A DNA stretch of 64,000 nucleotides from Collinsella aerofaciens (GTDB lineage Bacteria; Actinomycetota; Coriobacteriia; Coriobacteriales; Coriobacteriaceae): assembly GCF_020181355.1 (NCBI RefSeq), contig NZ_CP084004.1, forward strand, positions 1,736,001 through 1,800,000, read 5' to 3'. The notes below the pieces were generated by a model. That model saw nothing but the letters and a program-made list of their open reading frames with translations, did not search any database and was not told the DNA's origin. Made by a program: the position numbers and the translations under genes. Positions 10,253 through 15,037 of this stretch are shown here, piece after piece. The stretch's first letter is position 1. The number at the start of each line of letters is the position of its first letter.

Positions 10253-11218
10253 ATGAAAACTCTCAATGGCCTCATGAAACATCTTAGGGATAAAGGGATA
10301 GAGACGCACGGCTCTGTCCATAAAAGAAAGATGAAGAATTACGGCTATTATCATGGCTACAAGGGTCATCGTTTTGTGGGCAATTCTTCCAACTGCTTGG
10401 ATTTAACGAGCTTTGACGAGGTAATTGCCTTAAATGAGTTTGATATGGCGGTCAAGGCGCTCTTATATCCAAGCGTAATGTTTATTGAAACTGCGTTAAA
10501 GAACTATACGCTAGAAGCCGTGCTTGAAGATTCTCACTCGTTCGTGCTGGAGGATATTTTCTCTCGAACGCTCGTGGCGTACCGTGATTACCCTAGAAAA
10601 AGTAAAGACTATAGCGCTGCTATGAAAAAGCGCCTGGGTCTGCGCGCGGAAATCAATAGATTGATTCAGTACAATTATTCCAAGAACCCTGTTGTTAGGC
10701 ATTTTTATGACAGTGATAAACCCTTACCTATTTGGGCGCTATTCGAGGTCATGACTCTAGGAAACTTCGGTGTTTTCTATTCGTGCTTAAAGGGCTCGGT
10801 TAGACAGAGCATATCCGATGACCTAAAGCTTCCGAACAATTACGACGGTCCCGGGCTTCTCGAACGTACTATCTTTGTGCTCAAGGATCTCCGTAACGCG
10901 GTTGCTCATAACAGTGCCGTTTATGACGTTAGGTTTAAGAGGGCAAAAGTGGGAAATCAGCTTGGCCAGATGCTGTCATCCGAGGTTGGCGTTCCTTCGA
11001 TAGACTTTTCAACTATTACTGATTATGTCGTCCTAATTGTCTATCTGCTCAGAAAGATGATGGTTTCCAAAACTGAGTGCTATCAGTTAATTCGAAACTA
11101 CTCTAGCGTGCTGGAAGACTTGCACGGCTCTCTGTCTTCCTCTGATTTTCATAAAATAGTAAAGACTGGGGCCAGGAGCAAGATGGATGCACTTCGTGGC
11201 TATATAGCTGCTTCTTAA
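10253..11218 (+). CDS. Abi_2 family (AbiD/AbiF-like) abortive-infection protein, first copy
   Basis: A 321-residue protein of the Abi_2 family, whose members stop phage spread by disabling the infected cell. Typical features are the N-terminal YGYYHGYKG region, a central FDMAVKALLYPSVMFIETAL helix (residues about 63-82), PIWALFEVMTLGNFGVFYS (about 158-176) and the conserved LKDLRNAVAHNS near residue 216. The RNxxxH there is the catalytic signature of HEPN RNases. AAGGA lies seven bases before the ATG. The gene stands alone. A possible small RNA follows it. The family call is firm; the RNase activity is inferred from the motif. Confidence 0.9.
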   Translation: MKTLNGLMKHLRDKGIETHGSVHKRKMKNYGYYHGYKGHRFVGNSSNCLDLTSFDEVIALNEFDMAVKALLYPSVMFIETALKNYTLEAVLEDSHSFVLEDIFSRTLVAYRDYPRKSKDYSAAMKKRLGLRAEINRLIQYNYSKNPVVRHFYDSDKPLPIWALFEVMTLGNFGVFYSCLKGSVRQSISDDLKLPNNYDGPGLLERTIFVLKDLRNAVAHNSAVYDVRFKRAKVGNQLGQMLSSEVGVPSIDFSTITDYVVLIVYLLRKMMVSKTECYQLIRNYSSVLEDLHGSLSSSDFHKIVKTGARSKMDALRGYIAAS

Positions 11219-11937: not shown

Positions 11938-13410
11938 GTGGAGATGTGTTTCGATGGGTCCGGTGGCCATGCTCCGCCCTCCGCCCGGCACCTCTTCCCA
12001 GACTCAGCCGGACGGCCGGTCCGTCTATTCCGTTTTTTCCTTCAGGCTAGGACAGCGGGGCATCGCCCCTCTCTGCGCGCGCCCGCCCTATCAGTCCCGG
12101 CGTCAGGTCGAGCTCGCCGAGCGGCACGTCCTCCACGCCGTAGGCGTCCAGCAGCGCCGCCGCGTCGTCCCCGAGCATCGCCCTGAAGGCGCGGGCGGGC
12201 GTCGTGAAGCCGAGCGCGCCGCGGGGCTCGGAGTTCACGTGCGACATGGCCAGCGCCAGGTCGGCCGGGGAGAGCCGGTCGAACCTGATTCCGGCGCCCT
12301 TGGGCAGCAGCTTCCTTATCTCGACGTGGTTGCGCTCGCAGGCGCCCTTCTGGTCGCTTCGCCCGGGGTCGCAGTAGAACAGCCTCGTCTCGCCCGGCCC
12401 CTCGCCGAGCAGCGCCGCGATCGCCGCCTCGTCGGAGAACTCGGCGCCGTTGTCGGTGAGCACGGCGCGGAAGACCCTGCCCATGCCGTCGGCGCCGAGG
12501 ACCTCCCTGATATCGCCCAGGGCGTCCGCGACGCACCCGGCGGTCTTCTCCTCCAGCGGCAGCGCGAGCTGGAGCCTGCTGGGGCGGTGCAGCAGCGTGA
12601 GCAGGCAGGCGGAGTCCTCCCGCGCGCCCTCGACCGTGTCCATCTCCCAGGCCGCGGCGCACGCGTCCTCCCCGAGGGCGAGGAACGCGGCATGCGACCT
12701 GCGGGCGGAGTGGCGCGTGGCCGCCCGGCCGGCGGCGCTCTTCCTCGGCCTGTAGCCGACCTTGCGCCTGAGCTCCATGTTGGTCATGCCGTCGTAGCCC
12801 GCCGAGACCCAGCGGTAGATGGTCGACGGCGACAGGTCCACCGGGCCGCCGTTGCGCGCCGCCATCTGCTCGGGCGAGAGCCCCCGGCGCAGGCAGTCCC
12901 TTATCGCCTCCAGCCTGGCCGCCGCGGCGGGCTCGTCGGCGTCTATCCCGCGCCTGGACGAGACGAGGACCGAGTCGGCGCACAGCTGCGCGGCCCGGGC
13001 CTCGTAGAAGACGTGGGGGCGGCGCTTGCAGCCGATCGCGCGGTACCGGCCGCAGCCGTTGCAGCATCGCGGCCACGCGGCCAGGCGCGGGCAGGCCGCC
13101 GACAGGTCGGCGGAGGCGTCCACGCGCTCGCCGCGCCTGGACTTCGGCGCCGTCACGAACCTGTGCGACGCCACCTCGGCGCTCACCGTCGAGGGCGACC
13201 TGCCCAGCTCCCTCGCGATCTCCCTGCACGAGGCCCCGCGCTCCAGCATCCTCTGGACCGTGTCCCGCTCGTGCCTCGTGAGCCTTCCGTAGGCCCTCGG
13301 GACCGCCCTCGCGGAGCCCCTATTCTTCTTTCCGGACATGCCGTCCTCCGATCTCCCGGGGCCGGCCGGTCCGGCCCTCAGGGTATCGGGTTCCCACATT
13401 CATCCGCACA
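11938..13410 (-). mobile_element. IS30-family insertion element (ends approximate)
   Basis: The element is defined by its transposase gene. The ends are not certain. A weak inverted repeat is possible: GTGGAGATGTGTTT near 11938 against GTGCGGATGAATGT read inward from 13409 (matches at about two thirds of positions). The right end coincides with one half of a perfect 40-bp palindrome. IS30 elements are known to favour targets resembling their own ends, which could explain this. No clear target duplication was found. Confidence 0.5.
12047..13339 (-). CDS. IS30-family transposase
   Basis: A 430-residue DDE transposase. An N-terminal helix-turn-helix (RLTRHERDTVQRMLERGAS, then SCREIARELGRSPSTVSAEV) is typical of IS30. 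A cysteine-rich segment CCNGCGRYRAIGCKRRP follows. The catalytic core shows AWEMDTVEG, LTDNGAEFSD and KGACERNHVEIRK for the three acidic residues, then the usual LSPADLALAMSHVNSEPR region. The ATG at 13339 is preceded by GGAGGAC with good spacing, so the longer upstream frame (which runs through the palindrome) was not used. The gene looks intact and is much richer in GC than the island around it, so it arrived separately. Confidence 0.94.
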   Translation of the reverse strand: MSGKKNRGSARAVPRAYGRLTRHERDTVQRMLERGASCREIARELGRSPSTVSAEVASHRFVTAPKSRRGERVDASADLSAACPRLAAWPRCCNGCGRYRAIGCKRRPHVFYEARAAQLCADSVLVSSRRGIDADEPAAAARLEAIRDCLRRGLSPEQMAARNGGPVDLSPSTIYRWVSAGYDGMTNMELRRKVGYRPRKSAAGRAATRHSARRSHAAFLALGEDACAAAWEMDTVEGAREDSACLLTLLHRPSRLQLALPLEEKTAGCVADALGDIREVLGADGMGRVFRAVLTDNGAEFSDEAAIAALLGEGPGETRLFYCDPGRSDQKGACERNHVEIRKLLPKGAGIRFDRLSPADLALAMSHVNSEPRGALGFTTPARAFRAMLGDDAAALLDAYGVEDVPLGELDLTPGLIGRARAERGDAPLS

Positions 13411-13430
13411 TGTGCGGATGAATGTGGGAA
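13391..13430. repeat. Perfect 40-bp palindrome at the IS30 edge
   Basis: The half-site TTCCCACATTCATCCGCACA (13391-13410) is followed at once by its exact reverse complement (13411-13430). There is no spacer. It could be an IS30 end abutted to an end-like target, a hairpin element or a regulator site. Confidence 0.9.
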
Positions 13431-13605
13431 GTGTTCGGATGAAGTTGATAATCAAGGAAGACAAAAACATCAACGTGCTCGTTGCGTGCGCTTCATTTTA
13501 TGTCCGCGCCAGTGGCTACACTTTTGAAAAACGGCACGTAGGTATCTGTCGCATATCTCATGCTGTAGACATATCGGCGAGTTCAGAGTTGAAGGCGAGG
13601 TGAGT

Positions 13606-13833
13606 ATGAAAGGCAGAAATCAGCACGTTACGAAGCGTTCGGATGGCAATTGGCAGGTTAAGGGCGAAGGGGCAAGTCGCGCTTCTTTCGTTACGACGAC
13701 CCAGAGCGAGGCGATAAAGCTCGGTCGACGCATTTGCTCCAATCAAGAGTCTGAGCTGATCGTCCATCGTAGCGACGGAAGAATCCGCGAAAGGGATTCC
13801 CATGGCCACGATCCCTTCCCACCGAGGGGATAA
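13606..13833 (+). CDS. DUF2188 family small protein
   Basis: A 75-residue protein that matches the DUF2188 pattern along its length: an N-terminal HVTKRSDGNWQVKGEG, a TQSEAIKLGRRI helix and a C-terminal ELIVHRSDGRIRERDS. The family is small, widespread and without a settled function; members occur near phage or defence genes. GAGGTG just before the ATG at 13606 acts as ribosome-binding site, preferred over a GTG two codons earlier. A perfect 12-bp stem lies 14 bases after the stop. Confidence 0.85.
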   Translation: MKGRNQHVTKRSDGNWQVKGEGASRASFVTTTQSEAIKLGRRICSNQESELIVHRSDGRIRERDSHGHDPFPPRG

Positions 13834-13846
13834 GGGTGCGGCTCCA

Positions 13847-13885
13847 TAGCGACAGCGGCTCGTAATAGCGTGCCCGCTGTCGCTA
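13847..13885 (+). terminator. Hairpin after the DUF2188 gene
   Basis: TAGCGACAGCGG (13847-13858) pairs perfectly with CCGCTGTCGCTA (13874-13885) across a 15-base loop. No T run follows, so it may be a processing or stabilising hairpin rather than an intrinsic terminator. Confidence 0.55.
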
Positions 13886-13988
13886 AATGACTTCTTCGTT
13901 GTGGCGAAATACGAGCTTGGGGTTATTTCACATGAATTGGTCGTTTGGTCTCTTCTAAGGGCTGATTTGGGGGATTCGTGGTATTGGA

Positions 13989-14017
13989 TTGACGGCCCCC
14001 GAGTTCTCCCTTAAAGT
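13989..14017 (+). promoter_or_regulatory. Strong promoter for the RNA leader of the second Abi_2 gene
   Basis: TTGACG (13989-13994) and TAAAGT (14012-14017) are separated by exactly 17 bases. Transcription would start near 14024, upstream of a hairpin and a terminator and 80 bases before the Abi_2 ATG. Confidence 0.7.
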
Positions 14018-14023
14018 AAACGT

Positions 14024-14086
14024 TGTGATGAGGCCTTGCGACGGTACGTCCGGCTTGGTCCGTGGGAACCGCCGAAAGGCGGTTTT
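14024..14086 (+). ncRNA. Candidate structured RNA before the second Abi_2 gene (abiF-like arrangement)
   Basis: From the predicted start near 14024, an RNA of about 63 nt can form a hairpin with outer GCC/GGC and inner GACG-GTA-CGTC pairs (14033-14054), followed by a terminator hairpin (14067-14084). The gene for an Abi_2 protein starts 18 bases later. A structured RNA motif named abiF is known to be associated with Abi_2-type genes, and type III toxin-antitoxin systems also place an RNA and a terminator before the toxin gene. Whether this sequence belongs to either is not tested. Confidence 0.55.
14067..14086 (+). terminator. Intrinsic terminator between the RNA leader and the second Abi_2 gene
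   Basis: AACCGCC, loop GAAA, GGCGGTT, then TTTT partly within the stem. It lies between a good promoter and the coding start, so it should limit read-through into the Abi_2 gene. Confidence 0.75.
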
Positions 14087-14104
14087 CGCGTTTAAGGGGC
14101 CCAT

Positions 14105-15037
14105 ATGGATAAGCCATTTAAATCTATTACCGAGCAGATTGCTATTCTTGAAAGCCGTGGGCTCGAATGCGATAACAATACTCGTTTAGTTCTGGAGCGT
14201 GAGGGATACTATCCGGTTGTTAACGGCTACAAGGATTTGTTTCTTGACCAACGGGAAGACTCTGGCCAAGAGGTTTTCGTAAAAGGGACCAAGTTTTCTG
14301 ATATCTATCGTTTATTCGAATTCGATCGAACGTTGCGCCTGCTGATGTTTGAGTATTTTAACAAGGCGGAAGCAGTTCTTAAGACCGTCTGCTCTTATCG
14401 GTTTGCCATGGCTCATAAAGATAACCCAGAAGCATACCTTGATAGAGATTCCTATCGGGCTGAGGCCGGCTATCGAAAAAAGATCGACACGCTTATCGGT
14501 GATTTCGAGAAGGCGCTATGTAGGTCTAAAAAATGGAACAGTGATTATAAAAGGGACTACATTCGTCATTATGAAAATAATCACGACAATACGCCGGTAT
14601 GGGTTCTTATGAATTATTTAATGCTTGGCCAGGCATTCAAGTTTTTCGAGTTTCAACCAGAAAGCATGAGAAATTCCATTGCCAAGTCGTTTTCTGACCT
14701 TTATTCCGAGACGCATGAAGTCCATAAGCGCATCAGCCCACGAAGGCTAAGACTTGCATACGATCACATTAAAGATTTTCGAAATATCTGTGCGCATGAC
14801 GAGCGTCTGTTCTGCGCAAGGGTGTCTCCGTCTCGCGATGTCAATCTAGTAGGGGTTTTAAGCGATCTTGAGCTAGTGCTGACTGAGGATGACTATAAGA
14901 TGTTACGCCGAAATATACTGCTTGATGCACTCAAGTTGAGTGACGAGCTCAGTAACGATGCCAGCACAAAGGTGCTTTTCGCTATGGGTGTTAACGATTT
15001 ATCGAGTGTGTTTCCTAAGGAAATACTGGGGTCGTAA
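14105..15037 (+). CDS. Abi_2 family abortive-infection protein, second copy
   Basis: A 310-residue Abi_2 protein with a fuller match than the first copy: the N-terminal LEREGYYPVVNGYKDLFLD, the central DIYRLFEFDRTLRLLMFEYF and the HDNTPVWVLMNYLMLGQAF segment, then DFRNICAHDERLF near residue 230. The RNxxAH there is the HEPN RNase signature. The ATG at 14105 follows AAGGGG by five bases. The gene shares little with the first copy beyond family motifs, so it is not a recent duplication. A promoter, RNA hairpin and terminator precede it, suggesting tight control of a toxic product. Activity is inferred from family membership. Confidence 0.92.
   Translation: MDKPFKSITEQIAILESRGLECDNNTRLVLEREGYYPVVNGYKDLFLDQREDSGQEVFVKGTKFSDIYRLFEFDRTLRLLMFEYFNKAEAVLKTVCSYRFAMAHKDNPEAYLDRDSYRAEAGYRKKIDTLIGDFEKALCRSKKWNSDYKRDYIRHYENNHDNTPVWVLMNYLMLGQAFKFFEFQPESMRNSIAKSFSDLYSETHEVHKRISPRRLRLAYDHIKDFRNICAHDERLFCARVSPSRDVNLVGVLSDLELVLTEDDYKMLRRNILLDALKLSDELSNDASTKVLFAMGVNDLSSVFPKEILGS

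What the first reader, a model, noticed from the sequence alone, without database searches (positions are those of the whole stretch)
13989..14104. Promoter, short structured RNA and terminator in front of an Abi_2 gene
TTGACG-17-TAAAGT is a near-ideal promoter, yet 50 bases later there is a full terminator (AACCGCC-GAAA-GGCGGTT) before the Abi_2 ribosome-binding site. This is how RNA antitoxins are placed in type III toxin-antitoxin systems, and a conserved abiF RNA motif is known near Abi_2-type genes. The RNA may bind and hold the HEPN protein inactive.
Basis: partly seen in the sequence, partly recalled or inferred. Interest (0 to 1): 0.8.

Follow-up and report, generated by a model that had tools for sequence, protein, structure and literature searches.

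The report
Unlisted RNA guarding an Abi_2 toxin
In a gut bacterium a short, strongly conserved folded RNA sits directly in front of an anti-phage growth-arrest gene; it looks like the RNA that keeps the toxin asleep, as in a system described in 2025, but it belongs to an RNA family that the Rfam library does not list.

Summary
Window 14021-14091 is a two-hairpin RNA. It stands before all 13 full-length members of one Abi_2 (AbiD/F, HEPN) protein clade that I compared in Coriobacteriia. In 14 distinct leaders 13 of 24 base pairs show two-sided compensating changes, and the -10 box stands at one fixed distance in 22 of 26 copies. It is not the known abiF motif: RF03085 does not match here at E up to 10 but holds the same place before other Abi_2 clades. 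A covariance model finds 24 clear copies in 396 class genomes; 18 are followed by Abi_2, 12 intact and 6 in pieces. Seven copies, one of them from the genus search, have no Abi_2 behind them. Best reading: an RNA antitoxin that binds the HEPN RNase, plus partial attenuation, as shown for RCd22-AbiF of Clostridioides difficile. Transcript, binding and toxicity are inferred. The 'full terminator' is overstated: most of the T-run lies inside a 13-bp covarying stem. New variant of a known kind.

The parts
13989..14017 (+). Promoter TTGACG-17-TAAAGT
   Evidence: fixed distance to the RNA in 22 of 26 copies
14025..14031 (+). Unpaired near-invariant GUGAUGA; inferred 5' end of the RNA, about 7 bases after the -10 box
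   Evidence: the start itself is inferred
14032..14060 (+). Hairpin 1: outer stem of 8 pairs (two U.U mismatches in this copy), 2-base 5' bulge, inner stem CGG/CCG (14042-14052) with loop UACGU
   Evidence: 6 of 11 pairs with two-sided changes, 95.4% of cells paired
14061..14090 (+).
   Evidence: 7 of 13 pairs with two-sided changes; not listed by the terminator scan
14094..14099 (+). AAGGGG, probable ribosome-binding site
   Evidence: Sequence
14105..15037 (+). Abi_2 / AbiD-F gene, 310 aa, HEPN motif RNICAH at residues 226-231 (14780-14797)
   Evidence: Pfam PF07751 E 7.9e-38; AbiD in PADLOC; motif; kin of PDB 8vz6

Best explanation
The stretch is an RNA-antitoxin / HEPN-toxin cassette. One sigma-70-type promoter transcribes an RNA of about 66 nt (unpaired GUGAUGA, a bulged hairpin with a UACGU loop, then a long GC-rich hairpin) and, by read-through, the Abi_2 mRNA. 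The RNA binds the Abi_2 HEPN dimer and blocks its RNase site (R226/H231); hairpin 2 also limits read-through, so that antitoxin exceeds toxin. Phage infection or loss of the RNA would free the RNase, which stops growth. Shown here: the conserved structured RNA, its promoter position, its pairing with one protein clade, an intact HEPN motif. Inferred: a discrete transcript, binding, toxicity, neutralisation, attenuation and the phage trigger.
For: Covariation: 13 of 24 pairs with two-sided changes; score 0.480 against 0.267 in shuffles (0 of 500 as high) and 0.087-0.187 with slid partners. RNAalifold proposes 23 of the 24 pairs unaided on the first alignment. Promoter at a fixed distance. Class A is one side of one branch of the protein tree (13 rows, SH-aLRT 99); all leader labels need 8 changes against 52.3 shuffled. 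All 13 full-length proteins of that clade have the RNA, while 6 of 18 RNA-linked genes are in pieces and 7 RNA copies have no gene: the RNA outlives the toxin. Kin of PbAbiF, solved with its RNA, 8vz6. In C. difficile, RCd22 lies at the same place, is abundant, ends mostly at a terminator, binds AbiF and neutralises it in cis and in trans (PMC12373285: abstract, 12 of 38 passages and part 1 of the Discussion read).
Against: No RNA-seq, binding or toxicity test. The RNA is unrelated in sequence to RF03085, so transfer of the C. difficile mechanism is by analogy. The T-run after hairpin 2 is poor. A clade of 19 Abi_2 proteins with the HEPN motif has no leader RNA that I could recognise, so not every Abi_2 needs one upstream. 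G101 holds a class-A-like Abi_2 that lacks about the first 90 residues and has no class A RNA; it is truncated, so it is not an intact toxin without the RNA, but it is the nearest case. For AbiD1 of Lactococcus a phage protein acts on the mRNA leader instead (PMC2661086, abstract).
Confidence: 0.72

Rival explanations
1. A cis-acting leader only: hairpins 1 and 2 form an attenuator or translation control element of the abi mRNA, switched by a phage factor or stress, with no antitoxin action in trans.
For: The RNA lies in the 5' leader with a partial terminator; RCd22 also represses through termination (PMC12373285, passages). AbiD1 mRNA is translationally activated by phage Orf1, which binds a structure in its initiation region (PMC2661086, abstract only). 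In L146 the RNA precedes a RhuM gene instead.
Against: Four Collinsella genomes keep RNA and promoter with no gene of the Abi_2 family behind them, which a pure cis element would not explain unless they are recent relics. The strict pairing of RNA class and protein clade suggests contact with the protein.
Confidence: 0.18
2. A small leader peptide gene rather than an RNA: GTG/ATG at 14025/14028 opens a frame through both hairpins.
For: Frame 0 is open over the aligned stretch in 14 of 15 leaders.
Against: L061 has an in-frame stop, loops differ by 1 and 2 bases so the frame shifts between relatives (L037, L041, L043), the ATG is not conserved (GTGAAG is common), and substitutions follow base pairs.
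Confidence: 0.02
3. Guide-like RNA: the RNA activates or directs the HEPN RNase to a target instead of silencing it, as an early step towards Cas13.
For: AbiF is reported as the root of Cas13 (PMC12373285, PMC12737573, passages).
Against: No variable spacer-like segment: unpaired segments are the most conserved parts.
Confidence: 0.03

Closest known systems
RCd22-AbiF of Clostridioides difficile phage phi027 (PMC12373285)
   Same: Sigma-A-type promoter, short structured RNA, terminator, then the Abi_2 gene; HEPN motif RNQCAH there, RNICAH here; phage-borne there, and class A also lies in viral contigs
   Different: RCd22 has two copies of the RF03085 motif; this RNA has none and another fold: one bulged UACGU hairpin plus a long hairpin
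abiF RNA, Rfam RF03085
   Same: Same place before Abi_2 genes in the same class of bacteria: 14 of 27 matches at E up to 0.01 are followed by an Abi_2 domain
   Different: No match here; it goes with other protein clades
PbAbiF-AbiFr complex, PDB 8vz6 (named so in PMC12737573, passages)
   Same: Protein homologue with aligned HEPN motif
ToxIN, classical type III toxin-antitoxin (features recalled)
   Same: Order RNA, terminator, toxin
   Different: No tandem RNA repeats; toxin of another family
AbiD1 of Lactococcus lactis (PMC2661086, abstract)
   Same: AbiD/F protein group; structured mRNA leader
   Different: There a phage protein activates translation of the mRNA; no such factor was sought here

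Membership tests
[quoted passage not shown]
   PF07751 131 bits against cut-off 25.6; PADLOC AbiD
[quoted passage not shown]
   RNICAH at 226-231; R, N, C, A, H invariant in 39 aligned proteins
abiF RNA RF03085 | Score over the gathering cut-off of 37 bits | tested here: not met
   No match in the window at gathering, none at E up to 10 in 13400-14400, none in the whole genome at E up to 0.01, none at E up to 1 in nine further loci with class A RNA (L018 holds a solitary copy) or at E up to 0.1 in three more (L138, L146, L150)
Type III toxin-antitoxin (works like) | Structured RNA encoded directly upstream of the toxin behind one promoter | tested here: met
   co-transcription itself not tested
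Type III toxin-antitoxin | Terminator between RNA and toxin | tested here: inconclusive
   Hairpin 2 conserved and covarying, but short T-run; not listed by the scan
Type III toxin-antitoxin | RNA neutralises the toxin by direct binding | not testable with these tools
   Needs co-expression and co-purification
Classical type III (ToxIN) subfamily | Tandem repeats in the antitoxin RNA (recalled) | tested here: not met
   One unit visible in the sequence and one model match per locus, apart from two weak antisense-like matches under 27 bits; no repeat finder was run

The most novel reading that the evidence does not exclude
Abi_2/AbiF toxins use several RNA antitoxin families, of which Rfam lists one. 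A superfamily with a bulged hairpin and a UAMGU-type loop (classes A and B, perhaps C) stands before many Coriobacteriia Abi_2 clades. Solitary copies, kept with their promoter among other toxin-antitoxin and defence genes, act as free-standing immunity or anti-addiction RNAs against Abi_2 toxins that arrive on phages or other elements; solitary RF03085 copies would be the same thing in another family.
Probability: 0.3. Interest if true: 0.7.

Novelty: new variant of a known kind. Interest (0 to 1): 0.5.

Why it matters
AbiF with its RNA is the reported ancestor of Cas13, and few AbiF RNAs are characterised. A distinct, well-supported RNA family paired with a distinct toxin clade allows direct tests of which RNA features silence the HEPN RNase, how RNA and protein co-diversify, and whether RNAs without a toxin protect cells. 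It would merit an Rfam entry and would find AbiF-type cassettes that the present motif misses.

Tried and rejected
Rejected: membership in RF03085; a small leader peptide. Kissing dimer through the self-complementary ACGU of the loop: set aside because loops UAAGU, UAUGU, UCCGU and UUUAU occur. Phage records: no match to the leader at E up to 0.1. Plasmid and phage proteins: 3 records with 27.6-30.1% identity, and 54 records of which the 15 rows shown have 26.6-31.9%. Selection on solitary RNAs is not proven: G030 against the window has 1 of 67 RNA changes and 22 of 82 upstream (p 6e-6), but G009 against G019 has 2 of 67 and 9 of 69 (p 0.055), and the constraint may predate loss of the gene. 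Leader classes rest on regular expressions plus my hand corrections of 11 rows. In one search, 120 matching frames became 98 after dropping identical proteins and those without an N terminus; one search used the 88 of 98 with at least 275 residues (10 fragments dropped, 4 of them with class A RNA). The D label is wider than RF03085: of 8 D-labelled loci RF03085 matched 3 at E up to 0.1. Class B structure is weak: 7 pairs, 4 with two-sided changes.

Full report
WHAT IS THERE. The promoter at 13989-14017, a hairpin at 14032-14060, a second hairpin at 14061-14090, a probable ribosome-binding site and the Abi_2 gene 14105-15037 follow each other within about 1.1 kb. The protein is Abi_2 in Pfam (E 7.9e-38) and AbiD in PADLOC. 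The only solved chain found by sequence is 8vz6 (E 7.1e-8; profile E 4.8e-35), which a review names as the PbAbiF-RNA complex (PMC12737573, passages). The HEPN motif RNICAH is intact, and its R, N, C, A, H are invariant in 39 aligned proteins.

IS IT MORE THAN CHANCE. The promoter match alone is not. The evidence is comparative. Relatives about 39-56% identical in protein carry the same RNA before the gene. On 15 leaders, 14 of them distinct, 91.9% of the cells of a 24-pair structure form standard pairs, 13 of 24 pairs have two-sided changes, and the covariation score is 0.480, against 0.267 in shuffles (0 of 500 as high) and 0.087-0.187 with partners slid by 1-3 columns. One measure does not exceed its shuffles: further pair types, 32 against 30.2. 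An earlier alignment of 16 rows gave 12 of 24 pairs, and RNAalifold on it proposed 23 of these pairs unaided. The 3-bp inner stem changes on both sides in L049 (CGG/CCG to CGA/UCG). Against: the window and its Collinsella kin have two U.U mismatches in the outer stem; L091 reads the same way by eye.

WHERE THE RNA STARTS AND ENDS. TANNNT ends 3 bases before model position 1 in 22 of 26 copies, and TTGAC lies at a spacing of 16-18 in 18 of 26. The start is therefore inferred near the G of GUGAUGA, about 14025. The 3' end is less clear. I read hairpin 2 as a structural element and at best a partial terminator.

NOT THE KNOWN abiF MOTIF. RF03085 does not match the window at the gathering score or at E up to 10 in the surrounding 1 kb, nor nine further loci with class A RNA at E up to 1. 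In 396 class genomes it rings in 27 at E up to 0.01, 7 of them over the cut-off, and not in this genome. By its sequence it has another layout, one hairpin that seems to double as terminator. An Abi_2 domain follows 14 of the 27, but only 2 of the 7 over the cut-off, one of those seven having just 219 bases left on its contig.

PAIRING OF RNA AND PROTEIN. Of 98 distinct Abi_2 reading frames, the 88 of at least 275 residues went on a tree with their leader class. Class A is one side of one branch (13 rows, SH-aLRT 99); all labels need 8 changes against 52.3 shuffled. Labels came from regular expressions with 11 hand corrections. Near-copies help such a result; three of the 13 are Collinsella copies. 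The nearest case against is G101: a class-A-like protein that lacks about its first 90 residues, without class A RNA.

MODEL SEARCH. A covariance model from 15 leaders (R1) finds 24 copies at 39 bits or more in 396 genomes; the next match has 32.4 bits, and weaker matches at E up to 0.01 bring the tally to 54 genomes. Many of the 24 were in its training set and match by construction; not in it were L135, L141, L142, L146, L148, L150, L151 and L152. An Abi_2 domain starts within about 110 bases of the RNA's start in 18 of 24: 12 in one open frame, 6 in pieces (L139, L140, L147, L149, L151, L152), some of which could be sequencing errors. Six have none (L135, L141, L142, L146, L148, L150), though L148 begins with codons that by eye resemble an Abi_2 start. 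In the genus 10 of 43 genomes ring; the one further copy, L159 of G026, has no Abi_2 domain in the 1.57 kb from its start. The window's genome has one copy.

SOLITARY COPIES. In Collinsella G009, G019, G026 and G030 promoter and RNA are kept without Abi_2 behind them. Neighbours include MqsRA-type genes (L089), a helix-turn-helix protein (L135) and an AAA_21 gene (L141). In L146 a RhuM gene sits where Abi_2 would (PF13310 E 1.8e-100). RNA changes between solitary and linked Collinsella copies are 1-3 of 67. Whether this reflects selection is undecided.

OTHER LEADERS. Class B leaders share an outer stem, a 5' bulge and a 3-bp stem with mostly UAAGU or UACGU loops (4 of 7 pairs with two-sided changes). 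I suggest kinship with class A; it is not proven. A clade of 19 Abi_2 proteins shows no leader RNA that I could recognise.

MECHANISM. RCd22 of C. difficile (PMC12373285; abstract, 12 of 38 passages, part 1 of the Discussion) gives the model: one promoter, mostly early termination, an RNA that binds AbiF and neutralises it in cis and in trans, and loss of toxicity when R202 or H207 of the HEPN motif is changed. The window has the same order of parts and the equivalent motif at R226 and H231. That the RNA binds this protein is inferred from position, co-divergence and the RNA outliving the gene. The main rival is control in cis; AbiD1 of Lactococcus, whose mRNA is translationally activated by a phage protein (PMC2661086, abstract), is a precedent for it.

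LITERATURE. Searches listed one experimental paper on an AbiF RNA, the AbiD1 paper, reviews and unrelated items; I saw no description of this RNA. A search for the paper of 224 candidate RNAs, recalled as the source of the abiF motif, listed 10 of 67 citing papers and was not taken further. The primary PbAbiF paper is not held and may describe RNAs of this class. Novelty is claimed against Rfam and the held library only.

Noticed in passing
10253-11218: A second Abi_2/AbiD gene (motif RNAVAH) in the window, with no class A or RF03085-like leader recognised.
   Followed up: partly
13600-13833: Small DUF2188 gene just upstream, listed in PADLOC as PDC-S16.
   Followed up: no
12047-13399: A transposase-like gene with HTH_38 on the minus strand between the two Abi_2 genes.
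   Followed up: no
L146:1501-2577: A class A RNA stands directly before a RhuM-family gene in place of Abi_2; in L148 and L162 a RhuM-like frame lies behind a class A RNA and an Abi_2-like remnant, by eye.
   Followed up: partly
L160:11847-14012 and L161:6433-8598: Class A RNA plus intact Abi_2 beside a frame that by eye looks like an integrase, in viral contigs; the cassette probably travels with temperate phages.
   Followed up: partly
L063 to L068 (all but L065): Five of seven RF03085 matches over the cut-off have no Abi_2 domain behind them; L063 (219 bases left) and L066 (580) lie near contig ends.
   Followed up: partly
L099, L102, L106, L108 to L110, L112 to L121, L123, L124, L126 (not L111, L122): A fully supported clade of 19 Abi_2 proteins keeps the HEPN motif but shows no recognisable leader RNA.
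   Followed up: no
L012:1401-1490: In class B leaders the 5' GCAGUGA could pair with UCGCUGC, an arm of the following terminator-like hairpin, which would make a switch; seen by eye only.
   Followed up: no
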